Shown here piece by piece: positions 11,148 through 55,729 of a stretch of DNA of 64,000 nt (positions are counted from its first letter, which is position 1; each line of letters starts with the position of its first letter). Source of the stretch: Capitulum mitella. Lineage: Eukaryota; Arthropoda; Thecostraca; Pollicipedomorpha; Pollicipedidae. The notes beneath the pieces were generated by a model. That model was not told the origin of the DNA and searched no databases. It saw only the letters and a program-made list of their open reading frames with translations. Both the position numbers and the translations under genes were made by a program. The stretch is taken from positions 10,003,501-10,067,500 of the forward strand of contig CP099848.1 of assembly GCA_030062745.1 (NCBI GenBank). Direction: 5' to 3'.

Positions 11148-11317
11148 CTCTGCTGCATGCGGACCAGGCTGTCGATGCAGTCCTGTAGCTGGCGGATCTT
11201 GGCGTCCAGTTCGGCAGCCTCTCGCTGCAGGGCGCTGTACCGGCTGTGCAGCGAGAGCGACGCCAGCCGGTCCTGCACCAGCTCGTCGCGCAGCTGGGTC
11301 ACCGACCCCGGTCCGTC
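11148..11317 (-). CDS. Exon D of the same F-BAR gene: coiled-coil segment
   Basis: This exon is 170 bases, entering in phase 0 and leaving two bases into a codon. It follows GTCCGTGCTGCAG and ends ATGCAGCAGAG before GTGAGG, a strong donor. The product begins DGPGSVTQLRDELVQDR and continues with SRYSALQREAAELDAKIRQL and a similar final turn. Leucines and isoleucines fall at heptad spacing, so this is a coiled coil. In the Fes/Fer family a coiled coil of this kind (often called FX) follows the F-BAR and aids oligomerisation and phosphoinositide binding. A degenerate copy of the first 27 bases of the exon lies 71 bp upstream in the intron. As an isolated coiled coil it could belong to another protein; strand, phase and order support the same gene. 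Confidence 0.62.
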
Positions 11318-17546: not shown

Positions 17547-19124
17547 TGCATTCTCGGAGCTGCAGAAGCATTTTTGTAGATAATAGTAGATTCTGAAGTA
17601 AAATGTAGCATCTCAGTTAACAAGCAGTATTGTCGAATAACATATAAAAATCATCTTAGGTCATCCAAGGTCATCTTAGGTCATTCAACGTTATCTAAAG
17701 CCAATGACCTAGAATGACCTCCGATTAGCTAAATATCGTAACTTAGATGCCTTAAAAGCGTTTTCGGAGTTGACATCCAACACGGAATTTAATTTTAGGC
17801 ATGCCGTGATATTGCAGACCCATCACTCCGCGGCCGACGCCGCTCCATCCGTCAGAGTAAAAGTCAGGCGTTCGCTGTGTGGCGTTCTCTTTTGATGACA
17901 TCACAAGTAAACTGCACCAAGTTTATATCATTCAATTCGTTATAACTCAAGCTATCCGAATATATGGGTTGTTTTGCGATATCTGTTTCCTATCGCATTC
18001 CCAAAGATAAAAAGTAATGTGCTTCCCGCCGCAACTCATGACCCCAGATTACCTCCTCGATAATCCCCGAGGTGTGCATAAGCCAATAAGTCTATGTGTA
18101 GTCTTACAGAATATATAATTTGGAGGCGGTCGATACATACCTTATTGTATTTGCGCGCTCCAACCATCTTACAGTGAGACAAAACTGAGACCGTTGTAAA
18201 CTGGCCGCTTCGGCGCGAGAAGACGGCTTGCATTGTTTCCGTTATGACGTCCTAACTCGTTACCATGGCAACGTAAAAAAAAATATTTTGACCATAAAAT
18301 GCGAAAAAGATGCCCCAGAAACTAAAAGTCTCAGATGGATCAAACGGACCGTTCGGAAGTTGTCCTCGGAGAACCTCAGGGGGGGTTGCATCAACTCCGC
18401 CCCTCTGCACGGGCGAGGGTCAAGCGACCGTCTTCGCCTTGCCGGTTCTGCGTTACGGAAAACCGTTTCAGTTCTAAAATGGCTTGTGTCAATCAGACAT
18501 AGCGGGGTCTTGAAATGCCGATCGGCAACAGAACTGCAAATTTCTCCTGCCTGGAGCTATTTAATAGGGCAGTGCAGAGCACAGTACAGCTCAGAATGTC
18601 TGGAGCACGATTTGAATAGTTTCTTATCTGTTATCTTTCCAAAAAGCAAAAACATATATCTGATCTCGCTTAGCTTATTTCAACCAGCGTGATTTATCCA
18701 ACGTTACTTCAACAGAATACGTCCTAAATCTGGCATCGATTTCAAAACCAATGCATGCTAATGTCTTGCCCTCGACACTGTCGGCGCCGTGACGTCAGAG
18801 TTATGGCGCATACATGCCGATGGGTTTCCCGTGGGGGTGATCAATGCTTGCAACAGCCCGCAAGGCAGGTAGGGCGTTGATTCTACCAACTTGACAGTGA
18901 CGCTACCAACTCTGGATAGATATAAAAGTAGCATTACGGTGCTGAGTGTGCAAAAGCCGACTAAAAATACCTCTGGTCCCAACAATTTAGCAAATGCTCC
19001 TACATCGATGATGAAATTAACTTACTACTCGAAATGATGGTACTGAGAAGTAAGTCAACCATCGCAGCTGCGCACCTAAAACTGCACCAGCTTTACGTAA
19101 CGAAACGAAAAGAGAGAGCGAGAG

Positions 19125-19346
<222 letters not shown>

Positions 19347-21813: not shown

Positions 21814-22014
21814 CTGGGCGGAGGCGAGTTTCGGGTCGGCGGACGTTTTGGGCGGCAGGAACGCAGACGCGGCGGGCCGGGCGGCGGCCGCCGAGGCGGA
21901 CGACACGGCCGGCAGCGTCTCGGCGTGTCGCACGAGCGCGGCGATGTCCGCCCGGCTGCTGATGCCCCGGCAGAGCGAGCAGAGCGACTCGTACCGCCGA
22001 CTCCGCTCCACGGT
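21814..22014 (-). CDS. Exon C of the same F-BAR gene
   Basis: This exon encodes 67 residues, phase 0 at both ends. The acceptor is GACCGGCAG with CTGAC branch-like sites just upstream, and an in-frame stop lies a few codons before it, so the frame is closed upstream. The donor is CCCAG before GTAGGT. The peptide begins TVERSRRYESLCSLCRG, the end of the last long F-BAR helix. It continues with ADIAALVRHAETLP, an Ala/Ser-rich linker and FLPPKTSADP. In Fes/Fer proteins the same place holds the end of the F-BAR, a short acidic or hydrophobic segment and then an aromatic-Pro stretch leading to the coiled coil. The region is strongly GC-rich compared with flanking intron. Whether it joins exon D directly is not proved, but the phases agree. 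Confidence 0.66.
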
Positions 22015-37781: not shown

Positions 37782-40700
37782 GTAAACCCTCTCCCGGCAA
37801 GGGGTCCTAAAACAAGGGGTCGTTTTAGAAGCCACCCTGAGGTTTTTCTTGAATAACTTTCTAGTGACGGGAGATAGGACGTTGATTTCTTTTGTGGCTA
37901 TGTTTTTAACATTTACACGCCTTGAGTAAAACTTTCAAAACTTTTCTATTTCAGTTCAGTAAGCCGTGACTTCGAGTCAAAGTCATGTCGGTCGTGTTTT
38001 TAGCCAAATCGAACAAGTTCTTCCATTCGCTGGAAACTGGGTTTTACAGTGCTAGGTTTCATGTCTTTTTTCCATCAATGCATTCAATTCAGGCGCCAGT
38101 GACCTAATTTTAGTGCATCGGAAGGGTCAGGTCATCAGAGCTCATGCTTGGCCAAACGCGCGTGTCAGACGTTGACGTGAAACGCAACTGCAGTTTCGTA
38201 TATCGAATATGTGATGCCTTCACTGGCAAGGATGCTTTGATGCTTTGATGCTTTGATGTGGTAGCGTCAAAATAATGTTGATGCTACCACATCAACAATA
38301 TTTTGACGAACATCATTTGGTCTATTGTGAAACCAATCTGGAGATCAACGTCACGGTGGGTCGGAGAAACTCAAAAATGTATAAGCAAGTAATGATAATG
38401 TTTTTGGCTACCATGGCTGATGCAGACATGCTGTCTTCGGATTCGGTCATTCTTCAGCTCGTTCTGCCTATACCGGCATGAAAAGACATTGCTCTTTCCA
38501 GGGCCAAGTAAGGACAATGTCAGGTCAAGTGAAATCAAAAAAGGTCAGGCCGAGGTCGCGTGAGGTCATGACCTGGTACTGTCAGTGCCTAAACGAGGCA
38601 AATGAACTGCCATACAACTGCTTGTGACAACAAAATGCCACTATGCGTGTCCCTACGTGCAACCAAGAGCATTTACACATCGCACACTGAACGTCTGACG
38701 TTCGTAAACGATCAGACTACATAGATGCAACTCCATATCTGGAACTGTGGGCTGCCTCGAGCGGTCGGCCCGTCGTGTTGCAGCGCGCTCAGTGTCGGCT
38801 GGGCCGCTCGAGACCTGTGGGCTATTCATTAGCTGTGTGTACAGCTATTAGCCTAACCATGGCGTCCTGTCGATCTAACCATGCCGTGAACAAGCCTGGA
38901 TCATCAAACCAGAAAGTCAGGACCAGCAGGAGATTCAGACAATGTTGAACAAGCTGGAAAGTGATTCCAGTAATGGAGCAAAATATTGGCTTTCGCTGAA
39001 CGATGAAACTAGAACATGTGGAAAATGTGGCCGCGCCGGAGGCTGAATCCGAAACGGATGGAGCTGCTCAAGGTCAGCGAGATGAAAGGGAGGAACAGGG
39101 CAATCTCAACAAAAAAAGAACGTCCAATGACCCGAATTAATCAGGCAGAAATGAAAATGACTGCAAAGTCTGATCGAAAGTGGACAGCAGCAGCACCGAA
39201 CACAGACGTACAGGCCTCCGACCGAAATCAAATGAAGGATAGGCCCCACGGTAGCAACGAAAAGGCGTCACTTTTTGGGTGACGAGCAAGGAGGGACTGG
39301 ACCGGTTCATAACGGGCACAATACTGGAGAAGATTATGCGGGGGCCAAATGATGAAGCCCGTAAGCTGGTGGAGCGAATTAAAGACGATGCCGAATCACG
39401 GACGAATTCAGCGACCCGTATGCCCAGCCGTCGGCAACAGCTGAACGCCTACCTAGGTCTTATCATTATCGAGTCTGAGGACAAGGTCAGAAGTGTGACA
39501 TCGACGACATGTCCCTGGGACCATTTTTAAAGCCGGTCGTTCGCGCCGCCGTGACCTGCGACAGATTCAAGTTCGCCACGCGCGTTCTCCGATTCGACGG
39601 CAAGGTCAGCAAGGCCGGAAGAATGCGGAACGCCACGCTGGCTCCGATCCGAGAGCTGATCGAGACCTCCAGTAAGCATCTGCCAAAACACTGCTCGCCA
39701 TTTGACTGCGTCACCGCAGACGAGACGCTGCACAGATGCAAGGGACGATGCGGCTTCATCGTCTACATGTCGCAGAAGCCGCGCAAGCACTGCTTGCTGA
39801 TCCGCAACAGTGCGACTCTCGATCACGGCGCATAACCAAGAACGTCCAGCTTTGACATCGGAACTGACGAACATATCCCCACCGCAATCACGCGTGGAAT
39901 CTACCCGTTTAGTTCTTGAAATATATTCGGACGCATTTCTCATTGCAGGGTGGGCACACGGGGATGGTCGATAACCATCTTCTTCTACGTGCTGGACGTG
40001 GGTGATTTACAGAGAAGTACACCAGGACTTCAGCTCGCTACCATGAAATATGGCGGACGCAGAAGGTACACACGTGACCTCACGCTGGCCCTGATCACAC
40101 GCGAGTGCACGCACCGTGGATGGGGCCAGAGTCCGAACGGTGCAGGCCATCCAAACCGTTATCAAAAAGCCAGGAACGCAGCGGTCCGAGGAAGAGGCCC
40201 AGAGTGATCCTGTGCATGCATCCATGCAGCCAAGGGTGCGGCAGTCCGCGAGAGATGCCCAGAGTGTGCCCGTGTGGGAGCACTGCCGCTCATGTGTACT
40301 GTGCGGGCGGGCTGCCGGCTGTAAAGAATCACGGAAACATGCGAAAATGAGTCAGGTCAGGTGTCTCATGCAGGTCATTCTCCCGCAACCGCGTCGGGAG
40401 CAAGGCTGAGATCGTGTGCGCCCTCTTCGCAGCAGTCTGCGCAGTCTGTGACGCGAGACGCGCGAAGAGGGTGCAATGTGTAGGACATGCAGAGCAATTG
40501 TCAGGTGCGATGAATGCAAGCATCATGTTGATCGTATCCGGCTGAGTTCTCGCGTGTGTACCTAATAGGTAAATGCAACCGCACATTGTATCTAGCTTAG
40601 TTAATCAGTCTGAGTGCGCCTATTCACACCTGTTCTCAAGCATCAAATTCGTTTAAAACAGTTGTGATAATTACGTATATCATTCGTACGCAGTATCTAG

Positions 40701-44614: not shown

Positions 44615-44870
<256 letters not shown>

Positions 44871-45057
44871 ATTTCTTAAAGACTCTTTCTCTAATGCCAC
44901 TAAAGCAGGCGATTCTACCTTCTCCGACGCGCGTTGTATCTAGCCGGCCGGAGTCCTGCACCCGCCAGGAGCGGGTCCCGCCGCACCAGGACAAACGGAG
45001 GCGCCCCGCGCATCCCGCCGCGTCATTCACAGCCGGCCGGCGCGGCCAGGCCGCTCA

Positions 45058-45290
45058 CCATGCTGCTGAAGAGGTCGGACTTAGTGTTCAACCTGTAGCT
45101 AAAGACGTTGACCTCAGTGTTCACCCTGACGGTGATGACGTAGGCCTCAGTGCTCACCCTGCTGGTGGCGAATTCGGCCTCATTCCTCACGATGCTGGTC
45201 ACGAGGTCGGCCTTCGTGTTCACCCTGCTGGTTACGAGGGCGGCCACAGCGCTCACCTTGCTGGTGACGAGGTCGGCGGCCTGCAGAAGA
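45058..45290 (-). repeat. 33-bp minisatellite derived from the exon B splice donor
   Basis: There are six intronic units plus the exon B end itself. On the minus strand a unit reads GACCTCGTGACCAGCAGG followed by GTGAACACGAAGGCC. Each repeats the last codons of exon B (ADLVTS) and the donor region. Units have diverged at several positions but all keep length 33, so the exon frame stays open for about 78 codons past exon B. Confidence 0.88.
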
Positions 45291-45337
45291 CTCTCGGCGA
45301 TGATGCTGCTGACGTCGTTCTGCACCTCCTCCAGCTC
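45257..45337 (-). CDS. Exon B of the same F-BAR gene
   Basis: This exon has 27 codons, phase 0 at both ends. It starts after CCGGCCGCAG and ends ACCAGCAAG before GTGAGC, a near-consensus donor. The peptide starts ELEEVQNDVSSIIAESLL and ends AADLVTSK, an amphipathic helix. It joins in frame to exon A and to exon C, where F-BAR proteins have the long helix after the Leu-Pro turn. Beyond the donor the intron carries six further 33-bp units derived from the exon end (45058-45257), all open in the same frame. The precise 3' border is therefore the least certain part: a later donor would add 11 residues per unit. The chosen border is the best donor and gives the expected family spacing. Confidence 0.68.
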
Positions 45338-48300
45338 CTGCGGCCGGCCGGGAACAAGGTTACGTCCGGACCGCGCGTCAGTTCTCGTCTTGCCGACTCG
45401 GCAAGGACACTTCAGTGTCGGCGCGATGCGTGGCCGTAAACGAAAATCATGGGAGACTGAATCGGCGGAAAGAGTATGGCGTGAGAGCATGACGCGATGA
45501 TGAATATGATGTCAGAGCGGTGAACGGACGATGCATAAATAATGTGAGAGCACGATGTGATGATGAATTGATATGAGACCAGCACACGGACGATGTATAA
45601 TTGTCAATTTACAGAAACCATGAATTGGCAAATTTGGGTTGAAACAGTCATCAAGTATAAGAAATGCCGTTTTAATCCGATGACGTCACCCACGGTACCC
45701 AAAATAATGTCGAAATACTCACAAGCATTTCCCGCTTAACTATTTAACTTAAAAACGCGGCATTTCATGATGCAGTTATCTACAATGACATGTCGGGTAA
45801 GCCTCATTGATCTCATTTTGTCGATTGCATTGTCAACTTCTCGCGTTTGTTGGGTCAGATATATTTGCTTTGCTTGGGAATATTACTAGGCAGTGAGAGA
45901 TTAATCATTGTCAAATCAAGATCATTTTAGGGCATATGCCGAGTATGCCAGACGACAGCCAGTGGATTTATCCAATTTGTACGGCATGGTTATTCAACAA
46001 AGGTATGGGGTGGCAGGCATTAAACTGGTTTCCAAGTGGAAAACTCGTTTCATGCGTCGAGTCTGATAGCCTCTCGGGCCCCCTTTGTGGCCATTACCAT
46101 TTCCGGGTGACCTGAACTTTCTCCAACGCGGCCATTGTTCTACCATGCTGGTAATGGTTCCCGGAAAGGCGTCCAGCTTACATTTAGGCATATACCTCTC
46201 CAGGGGGTGGTCGGTAAGCGTGACGACCTCCCAACCTTCATGCGGAATGGCTTTAAAAACGTTTTAGTGTAATAGACTGCGGGGACCGACAAAATCCAGT
46301 CACCACCAGGAAAGCGGCCGCTCGCAACGTTTCCTTAAGATCTCCACACCGATTATCGATCCCGGTGCCTCACTGACGGCCTGAAGACGTCGGGAAGATT
46401 TCCTGCATCGCCCAATCTGTGGAGGAGATGCTTGATTTGACGTGCCGGCGTCGCGTGACCCACGTTCACGCGCGGTCACGTGCAGGCGTGCTGTCACGCA
46501 GATGCTCGGATTCCGCGGATACACGGAGCTCCGCACGTGCCGCCGGGTCCCGAATACGCAGCATCGTATGGGACGACAAAGGCAGGGGTGCGGGTTGGGG
46601 GGAGGAGCAAGGAACCATTCTGAGTCAGTTCTTTCCAGTCAACGCCCATAAGGTCGGTGTTGGATTTTAAAAAGTTGGGGGGGGGGCAAATGCCCCCTGC
46701 CCCGCTTCCCGCGTCCTTGGACACAGACGTACCGTCAGGTTCGCAATACGGAGCACCGTACGGGACGACACGGAGCGGCGAGTGATGATCAAGGTCCCAG
46801 CACAGTGAGGAATGTCTGACACCTGACAGTAAAGTAAACCGCAGTGGCACGTGGCACGGACCACGTGACACGATCATACCGTATAATCAAATACGTGCAG
46901 AGGTCACAACAAAATAATTTGTTTTAACTATGAATATGCAAAATAATTTCATTTTCACGACGTTTAAGTTGCCCATAACGACTTTTCGATCGCTATGAAA
47001 TTTGGCATAGGTGGTATAGGTGGCATAGGTCCGTGTGAAACCTTTCAACATACAATTTCATAATTTAGGTTAACAGCCTTGATAAGTCAAGGAGCCATGG
47101 CCTCTTTCTCCAGGGCAGGGAGGAATCTGAACATGGATACGGTTCATCGTCGTGTAGACGTGTCCGTGCTTCGTGAGCAATATCACGTCGAGTGCAGCAG
47201 GCCTGCTTTGCCTCCGACTCAAGATTTCCTCTCGTGGCAGCCAGAATTCCCGACAATATACAGCGTGCAAATGGTAACCAATCAGAACACAGAAATGCCA
47301 TACTCGGCCAGGAATTACAGAAATACGTAAGAATATACTAACATGACTTCTCGTGGGGTCACGAGTGAAATCCAACTGCAAATTAAAAGAACCAAGCTGG
47401 ATATCACTGTGTGGGAAAAACACCAAGCTACACATTCGGTTTCGTTCCATTGTTCTATAATGCCGTGAGTGGAAATGGCTGCGGGGTCGTACGAATTCCT
47501 CTGCACTTTCCGTAGGTGGCCAAATGACGAATACTAGCGAGAGTTAATGATTTCTTTGTGGGAGTGGGTCCACTAAAGATGCCTGAAATAGCGAAACAAG
47601 GTGCTTTCTTCTCAGACTTTACCGGCAGGCTGTCACGTGCTGGCACTTGGAAATTTAAAGTCTCAGCCAGTGACCACGCAACCCGGAAGCCCATAATCCA
47701 GAGAGCGCCACACGCAGGCGTTCAGCACTCACAGCTTGGCGTCCCACAGTTTAAACCCTTTTTTCGAGTGCACGGGGATGCCGCTTCTTCCCGGCATCCC
47801 GTTGACACCTGTTGCTGCTTACTTGATAAACAAATAATTTTGAAATATTTGGAAGCAATGTATGGTACGACCGATCTACAAATCATGTAACTTCCTGTCA
47901 TTCCAAAAAACGTCGGACAAATATGTGAAGATTCAACACATCAAAAACTGCCCGAAAATGAGTGACCTTCGACAGCGTGTTTAACGTTGGTTGCATTTCA
48001 GAGGAGCCTACAAAGAACGCACTGACGGGTAAAAGACGATTGAGGACAATCCATTGGTTCGGCCAATGAACCAGCGAATTGAGCTTTAAGTAGATCAGTG
48101 TTTGTATTCGTCAGTTATTCGGGCGAAGGGGCTCGTCGATAACGCGATCACATGGCTGTTTGCGTTCGTATCATATCTTTAGGGATCCAGGAAATAAATC
48201 CTGCCGGTAATCTGTACCGTAATCGAAGCAGCCATATAACCGATATGTGTAGTGACGTAATGGAACTTTCGGTGAACTTTGGACCGGTGTTTTATATCCA

Positions 48301-54439: not shown

Positions 54440-54912
54440 CAACTCATCCGCCTACTCGTAGGACAGAGATCAGACTAATCATAGGAACAGAAACTCATCT
54501 ATTCATGGGACAGAGATCAGTCTACTCATAGGACAGACATCCGCCCACTCATAGGACAGATATCAGCCTACTCACATGAAGGAGGCCCGCCTACTCCATA
54601 GGACAGAGATCAGCCTACTCACATGACGGAGGCTCGCCTACCCATAGAACAAGAGATCCGCCTACTGACATGACAAAGGTCCGCTTACTCATGGGACAAA
54701 GGTCCGCCTACTCACATAACAGAGATTTGCCTCCTCACAGGACAGAGATCTGCCTACTCATAGCACAGATATCTTCCTACTCATAGAACAGAGATCTGCC
54801 TACCCATAGGACAAAGGTCTGCCTACTCATAGCACAAACATCCTCTTACTCATAGGACAGAGATCCGCCTACCCACAGGACAGAGGCCCGCCTATTCATA
54901 GGACAGAGATCA
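54440..54912 (+). repeat. Minisatellite, unit about 24-26 bp
   Basis: About eighteen units of CCGCCTACTCATAGGACAGA plus GAT, with CAGCCTACTC, ACATGA and GAGGCCC variants. It lies inside the A-B intron. No coding frame runs through it. Confidence 0.9.
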
Positions 54913-55564
54913 GTCGGTTTGCTGGGCGCAAAGGAATCTAGTCATTTAAAACACTTTGTTTTTGCTTAGAGCATTTGTTGAAATAATGTCTGTCGGCGAC
55001 AACATTTTTAAGATTTTGAGCTCCGTGTGAGTTTGCGAGACGCATGCATAGAATTAGAGTCATTTCTAAGTACAGCTTGTTGCATGCGTTATGAATTCCA
55101 CCTCCGACTGTGTGATTCCACGACACGGTTGATTCTATGAGGAAGTTTAACCCGCCGTAAAAAAAATATGACGCGACCACGTAGGCAACACTTTTTTTCA
55201 TTTCATATCATTTCATTCGATTCGTAACGGCTTGTTTCCGTGCAATCAAAGAAACACTCTCAGCTTTTGACAGTCTGCGTTTTTCTTCGTAACAAAACAG
55301 CACTAGCGCCGAAAGGGATAAACCTGGTAAAGAAATCTACACCTAAACGACAAACATCACACAACAGACCAAATTCAAGACTGATCGTGTCCATGACAAC
55401 AACACATACCATACAGGCAATCGCCATCCTTTAGCAGATCAAAATTCCACTCTTCGTGAACCCCTCTAACGGGGTGTGTCTTAGCCACATAACGCGTCCA
55501 CGACATGAAGCGGGACACCCTGTCTGCCAGCGGGCAGGCACGCTGGTCGGCCGCCATCTCCCAC

Positions 55565-55729
55565 CTGCATCAGCTGCGGCAGCGTACTTCCGTTGAACTC
55601 CACCACCATGGCGTTGGCGGCGTGCAACTGCTGGACGTAGGCGTTGTGCGCGTCGAAGTAGGCGGCCAGCGTGGCGTTGCTGGGCGACGACACGTGCGCC
55701 CGGTACGAGTCCGAGTAGGCCTTGTGGCA
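55565..55729 (-). CDS. Exon A of an F-BAR protein gene (Fps/Fes/Fer-like)
   Basis: This exon encodes 55 residues in phase 0 at both ends. A pyrimidine-rich tract ending TGCCTGCAG precedes it on the minus strand, and it ends CAG before GTGGGA, a good donor. The core reads FDAHNAYVQQLHAANAM and then LPQLMQ. This matches the helix of FCH/F-BAR domains in which a His-Asn-x-Tyr-Val motif is followed about 20 residues later by Leu-Pro and a hydrophobic pair, as in FES and FER. F-BAR domains dimerise and bind curved plasma membrane. Continuity with exon B (LPQLMQ then ELEEVQ) fits the family pattern, in which a Leu-Glu-rich helix follows the Leu-Pro turn. F-BAR assignment is fairly secure; the exact subfamily is inference. 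Earlier exons of the domain are not identified. Confidence 0.72.

What the first reader, a model, noticed from the sequence alone, without database searches (positions are those of the whole stretch)
45058..45337. A minisatellite made from the end of an exon and its splice donor
Seen: beyond exon B the intron carries six 33-bp units, each a variant of the last codons of exon B plus the donor. All units keep the exon frame open, and several keep an AGG or CAG before GT at the equivalent place. Inference: the array could offer competing donors that add 11 residues per unit at the end of an F-BAR helix, or could be neutral decoys. Since 33 bp is three helical turns of coil, an extension would keep helix register.
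Basis: partly seen in the sequence, partly recalled or inferred. Interest (0 to 1): 0.8.

Follow-up and report, generated by a model that had tools for sequence, protein, structure and literature searches.

The report
Minisatellite copied from a splice junction
In this animal genome the end of an exon and the start of its intron have been copied six more times in a row into the intron; the same kind of duplication is known from lancelets and is most likely a harmless by-product, although a read-through could in principle lengthen a helix of the protein.

Summary
On the minus strand seven 33-bp units run from 45280 to 45050: the first holds the last 24 nt of a coding exon (45337-45257) and 9 nt of intron with the donor; six degenerate copies follow, without indels. 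The gene looks like an F-BAR protein; the donor at 45256 gives exactly the spacing of a solved F-BAR. The copies look neutral: exon-derived and intron-derived columns changed alike (0.194 and 0.185 per site), pN/pS is 2.15, and neutral decay leaves the frame open in 60-69% of simulations. Such arrays are known as 'mirage' minisatellites in amphioxus, reported not to disturb splicing. Three more lie in the part of this genome that I read: lipase donor, MRPL55 acceptor, syndapin acceptor. Boundary arrays are not clearly above chance (3 seen, 0.8-1.2 expected, P 0.08-0.15). Against neutrality: copies at 45157 and 45058 keep strong in-frame donors, and the read-through is predicted as one helix (pLDDT 95.5; antisense control 49.3). 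An optional extension of 33 or 66 residues stays open; RNA would decide.

The parts
45257..45337 (-). Exon B, 81 nt, phase 0 at both ends: ELEEVQNDVSSIIAESLLQAADLVTSK
   Evidence: AG acceptor and AAG|GTGAGC donor; ungapped fit of exons A+B+C to the FBP1 and CIP4 F-BAR domains
45248..45280 (-). Unit 0: last 24 nt of exon B plus 9 nt of intron with the authentic donor (GT at 45256-45255)
   Evidence: donor score 10.5, the best of the array
45215..45247 (-). Unit 1 (intronic), AGG|GTGAAC, weak donor (5.1)
45182..45214 (-). Unit 2 (intronic), ATC|GTGAGG, weak donor (3.9)
45149..45181 (-). Unit 3 (intronic), AGG|GTGAGC, GT at 45157; use would add 33 residues in frame
   Evidence: score 8.4, 99.6th percentile of minus-strand GTs in the window
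45116..45148 (-). Unit 4 (intronic), AGG|GTGAAC, weak donor (5.1)
45083..45115 (-). Unit 5 (intronic), donor lost (TT in place of GT)
45050..45082 (-). Unit 6 (intronic, last), ATG|GTGAGC, GT at 45058; use would add 66 residues in frame
   Evidence: score 8.3, 99.5th percentile
55565..55729 (-). Exon A (F-BAR-like), upstream of B
21814..22014 (-). Exon C (end of the F-BAR-like part), next exon found downstream of B
11148..11317 (-). Exon D (coiled-coil-like by eye)

Best explanation
It is a minisatellite of the 'mirage' type: a tandem duplication that took in an exon-intron boundary. A 33-bp stretch holding the last eight codons of exon B and the first nine intron bases was duplicated head to tail (shown: the seven units). 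Only the first unit is bound to the exon by selection; the copies fell into the intron, multiplied and then decayed (inferred from equal divergence of exon-derived and intron-derived columns and from pN/pS not below 1). Splicing most likely keeps to the original donor at 45256, which is the strongest site in the array and the one that gives the canonical F-BAR spacing (the spacing is shown; the use of the donor is inferred). The array is then a neutral by-product of minisatellite turnover in a genome rich in minisatellites, with occasional cryptic use of the copies at 45157 and 45058 not excluded.
For: Units and register. Changes per site in units 1-6: exonic columns 0.194, intronic columns 0.185. 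Changes at codon positions 1/2/3 are 16/17/9; pN/pS 2.15 in the exon frame, so no purifying selection. Donor 45256 scores best (10.5), and the B|C junction leaves 50 residues between the LPQLMQ motif and the conserved D, as in FBP1; the ungapped fit is the best of 80 offsets for both F-BARs (z 4.3 and 3.8; the two are related to each other). Two of six copies keep a strong donor, the other four are weakened or lost. Three further exon-boundary arrays lie in unrelated genes: lipase donor C10:9911344-9911546, MRPL55 acceptor C10:10147811-10148580, syndapin acceptor L003:1054-1424, with the families named by Pfam. The number of boundary hits is near chance. Amphioxus mirages are reported to splice normally.
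Against: No indel in seven units at 72% match, while the seven other comparably degenerate arrays (matches 77% or less, at least 5 copies) have 1 to 10% indels in their better row. Hydrophobic helix positions are lost in 1 of 28 cells against 4 to 5 expected, and proline plus glycine number 1 against 4 to 5 expected (P about 0.03-0.08 over the settings tried; several measures were tested). The read-through is predicted as one confident helix. The low third-position change (9 of 42, P about 0.05) is not explained by plain neutrality. In human segmental duplications 66% of intron changes caused by such repeats have support for a transcript that keeps the repeat in the exon (PMC2812944, passages).
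Confidence: 0.77

Rival explanations
1. The array is a set of working alternative donors. Splicing at the copy at 45157 or 45058 adds 33 or 66 residues to the last long helix of the F-BAR; 11 residues per unit (about three helical turns) keep the helix face and the reading frame.
For: Both copies score like exon A's real donor; the in-register donors are all phase 0; read-through predicted as one helix 2-92 of 93, pLDDT 95.5 (five models 76.5 to 95.5), antisense control 49.3; no indels; few helix breakers; repeats at exon-intron boundaries in human segmental duplications often have transcripts that keep them.
Against: pN/pS 2.15 and no excess of conservative changes (BLOSUM P 0.67-0.82); the F-BARs compared have no such insert; amphioxus mirages are reported to splice normally.
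Confidence: 0.12
2. The copies act at the RNA level: repeated donor-like sites bind U1 snRNP near the true donor and help define it in front of a 23-kb intron, without being used.
For: GT kept in 5 of 6 copies; the GTGA columns have 1 change where about 5 are expected, P 0.02 for that place alone.
Against: Not significant once every four-column window is counted (P 0.37); four of six copies have lost -1 G, +1 G or +5 G.
Confidence: 0.06
3. The array is constitutively exonic: exon B really ends at 45059 and the protein carries six extra hendecads.
For: Highest coding score of the window for 45032-45352 (50.0); good donor at 45058.
Against: It would put 66 residues into a stretch whose length otherwise matches FBP1 exactly; pN/pS above 1.
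Confidence: 0.05

Closest known systems
'Mirage' minisatellites of amphioxus: Adh3, globins BflGb6 and BflGb9, further loci cited there (PMC3087553, passages read), Adh, troponin C and PGBD5 (PMC3902484, one passage read)
   Same: Tandem repeats that span an exon-intron boundary, with part of the exon and the splice signal in the unit; donor and acceptor sides both affected; many but not all copies keep AG or GT.
   Different: Here the genome is probably that of an arthropod (inferred, not proved), the unit is a multiple of three and keeps the frame open, and the units are more diverged (mean p-distance 0.316; BflGb6 units are given as 81-100% identical).
Internal tandem repeats at exon-intron boundaries in human segmental duplications (PMC2812944, passages read)
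   Same: Minisatellites with units of about 30 bp that change exon or intron length at a boundary.
   Different: Those are described as recent and variable, many with transcript support; here no transcript was available and the units are old.
Intron gain by tandem duplication (potato RdRp, PMC4974935, search listing and start of abstract only)
   Same: A tandem duplication within a gene; the role of AGGT there is recalled.
   Different: Here the array lies inside an intron that exists already; no new intron is seen.

Membership tests
Mirage minisatellite | Tandem units span an exon-intron boundary | tested here: met
   Unit 0 holds 24 nt of exon B and 9 nt of intron; exon end supported by the F-BAR spacing
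Mirage minisatellite | Copies carry the splice signal, not all of them intact | tested here: met
   GT in 5 of 6 copies, -1 G together with GT and +5 G in 2 of 6
Mirage minisatellite | Regular splicing from the authentic site | not testable with these tools
   No RNA data at hand
Mirage minisatellite | Length instability between individuals or cells | tested here: inconclusive
   One assembly only; high divergence between units (mean p-distance 0.316; adjacent 23.5 and non-adjacent 22.2 of 33 identical) speaks against recent turnover
F-BAR protein | Sequence match to an F-BAR or FCH profile | tested here: inconclusive
   No F-BAR match by Pfam or phmmer for A+B+C+D and no FCH match in the window; ungapped fit to FBP1 z 4.3 and CIP4 z 3.8
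STAC protein | C1 domain followed by STAC-type tandem SH3 | tested here: inconclusive
   Downstream minus-strand exons outside the window match C1_1 (20.4 bits, below the cut-off of 26.5) and SH3 over the cut-off, best PDB hits STAC3 and STAC2; that they belong to the same gene as exons A-D is inferred from strand and order

The most novel reading that the evidence does not exclude
A minisatellite born at a splice donor has become a tunable coding module: alternative use of the donors at 45256, 45157 and 45058 sets the length of an F-BAR helix in blocks of 11-residue hendecads, changing the curvature or the partner fit of the dimer. The excess of amino-acid changes with the helix kept would then be diversification.
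Probability: 0.1. Interest if true: 0.75.

Novelty: new member of a known kind. Interest (0 to 1): 0.36.

Why it matters
Under the name mirage I saw such arrays only for lancelets (searches; the library lacks most subscription journals); boundary repeats of a similar kind are also described in human segmental duplications. Four cases in about 0.3 Mb of a genome that is probably arthropod suggest that minisatellite-rich genomes make them routinely, at about the rate expected if arrays fall at random with respect to exon edges. That would make them an ordinary source of duplicated splice sites and a test bed for how the spliceosome picks one of several similar donors.

Tried and rejected
Pfam and phmmer on exon B with its frame, on exon B alone, on A+B and on A+B+C+D found no F-BAR; weak matches such as Dynactin (16.5 bits, cut-off 25.6) were set aside. 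An FCH search of the own genome gave 14 matches at E up to 10 (8 over the cut-off), none in the window. A search of the own genome with the A-D protein gave 7 matches; the 4 with E below 1 are the exons of this gene, so no paralogue was found. A 132-base query of units 0-3 matched twice, both inside this array. I suspected another boundary array at the last SH3 exon (C10:9945281-9945322); it overlaps a stop codon, not a donor, and was dropped. Arrays near FCH exons in L004 and L005 do not reach an exon edge. The idea that splice sites attract arrays was tested and is not established: the 43 edges are approximate and were picked by me, partly after seeing the arrays; three non-splice edges were left out; and the region was chosen because of this array, so even P 0.08-0.15 is flattering. 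Donor scores rest on a human-like matrix recalled from memory, helix costs on a recalled scale.

Full report
What is there. Read on the minus strand, a coding exon (45337-45257) ends AAG|GTGAGC. From 45280 seven 33-bp units follow head to tail to 45050: one over the exon end and donor, six in the intron. Units share 18 to 26 of 33 bases and differ from their consensus by 42 changes in all, with no indel. The period is far above chance. The repeat does not extend further: the 33-mers before and after match the consensus at 12 of 33 each. A 132-base query of units 0-3 finds only this place in the genome, which has 477 Mb in 16 contigs.

The gene. A codon-preference scan and the splice signals give four minus-strand exons in the window: A 55729-55565, B, C 22014-21814, D 11317-11148. 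Profiles do not recognise them. Laid without gaps on the F-BAR of FBP1 (2efl) and CIP4 (2efk), A+B+C fit at one offset that is the best of 80 for both (8 and 7 identities of 70, z 4.3 and 3.8). From the LPQLMQ motif to the conserved D there are 50 residues here and in FBP1, so the B|C junction at donor 45256 is the canonical one. Further down on the same strand, outside the window, lie exons like C1 (below Pfam's cut-off) and SH3, the latter nearest to STAC3 and STAC2. One gene with F-BAR, C1 and SH3 is my inference. No paralogue was found.

The organism. Syndapin of this genome is nearest to the chain called Syndapin (3i2w; its species recalled as Drosophila). A genome of 477 Mb in 16 contigs is compatible with a barnacle: Capitulum mitella is given as 463.09 Mb and 16 chromosomes (PMC8416341, passages) or 512.06 Mb (PMC11331182, passages). 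Neither size equals this one, so the species is not settled.

Is it translated? Against: changes fall 16/17/9 on codon positions 1/2/3; pN/pS is 2.15, above 99% of 600 neutral simulations; copies of exon and copies of intron have diverged alike (0.194 and 0.185); changes are not conservative by BLOSUM. The open frame is expected in 60-69% of simulations, and one antisense frame is open as well. For: no indels; hydrophobic positions and absence of helix breakers slightly better kept than expected (P 0.03-0.08, several measures tested); the read-through with exon B folds in silico as one helix with pLDDT 95.5 (five models 76.5 to 95.5), while an antisense frame of the array gives 49.3 and strands. 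The predictions used single sequences, and a repeat of a helical seed is likely to be called helical, so this shows possibility and not use. Only one control frame could be run.

Donors. With a recalled matrix the authentic donor scores 10.5, copies 3 and 6 score 8.4 and 8.3, copies 1 and 4 score 5.1, copy 2 3.9, and copy 5 has no GT in register. The donors of exons A, C and D score 8.2, 10.1 and 10.0. Cryptic use of copies 3 and 6 is therefore credible. The GTGA columns changed once against about five expected (P 0.02), but some four-column window does as well in 37% of simulations.

Not alone. In 264 kb around the window and 14 loci of FCH matches, minisatellites are common. Three more span exon edges: the donor of a lipase exon (51-bp units with 40 nt of exon and 11 of intron; a second lipase gene has the same length to its donor), the acceptor of MRPL55 exon 2 (the joined peptide matches Mitoc_L55 across the junction) and the acceptor before the syndapin start (edge inferred). 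Against 43 exon edges of the 264 kb, 3 lie in arrays where 0.8 to 1.2 are expected (P 0.08-0.15; edges approximate, picked by me, in a region chosen because of this array). An excess over chance is therefore not shown.

Known kind. Amphioxus genes carry the same structures under the name mirages; splicing is reported to be undisturbed and array length unstable (PMC3087553; PMC3902484; passages read). The original Adh paper is not held. In human segmental duplications, repeats at boundaries are tied to new introns, and 66% of intron changes also have a transcript with the repeat kept (PMC2812944, passages), which keeps the coding reading alive. This locus meets the structural features of a mirage; splicing and instability could not be tested. 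I file it as a new member of that kind, in a lineage for which I saw no earlier report.

Noticed in passing
L036:7844-8046 (C10:9911344-9911546): 51-bp tandem array of four units, made of the last 40 nt of a lipase exon plus its donor; one unit is 1 bp shorter. A second donor-side mirage.
   Followed up: yes
L025:311-1080 (C10:10147811-10148580): 41-bp and 108-bp tandem array that ends across the acceptor and first codons of MRPL55 exon 2: an acceptor-side mirage with very similar units (98% match for the 108-bp period).
   Followed up: partly
L003:1054-1424: 32-bp array of about 12 units that ends over the acceptor before the start codon of a syndapin gene; three upstream copies keep AG|G at the equivalent place.
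   Followed up: partly
39497-39808 (+): Transposase fragment (Pfam DDE_Tnp_1_7, E 8.7e-10), piggyBac-like by recall.
   Followed up: no
54446-54913: 23-bp minisatellite of about 20 units, 74% match, in the intron between exons A and B.
   Followed up: no
19111-19342 and 44618-44730: Long AG/CT dinucleotide tracts (116 and 57 copies).
   Followed up: no
L004:1933-2188: 33-bp array with GGTGAGC-like motifs in the intron after a syndapin-like exon, about 280 nt beyond its donor; does not reach the exon.
   Followed up: partly
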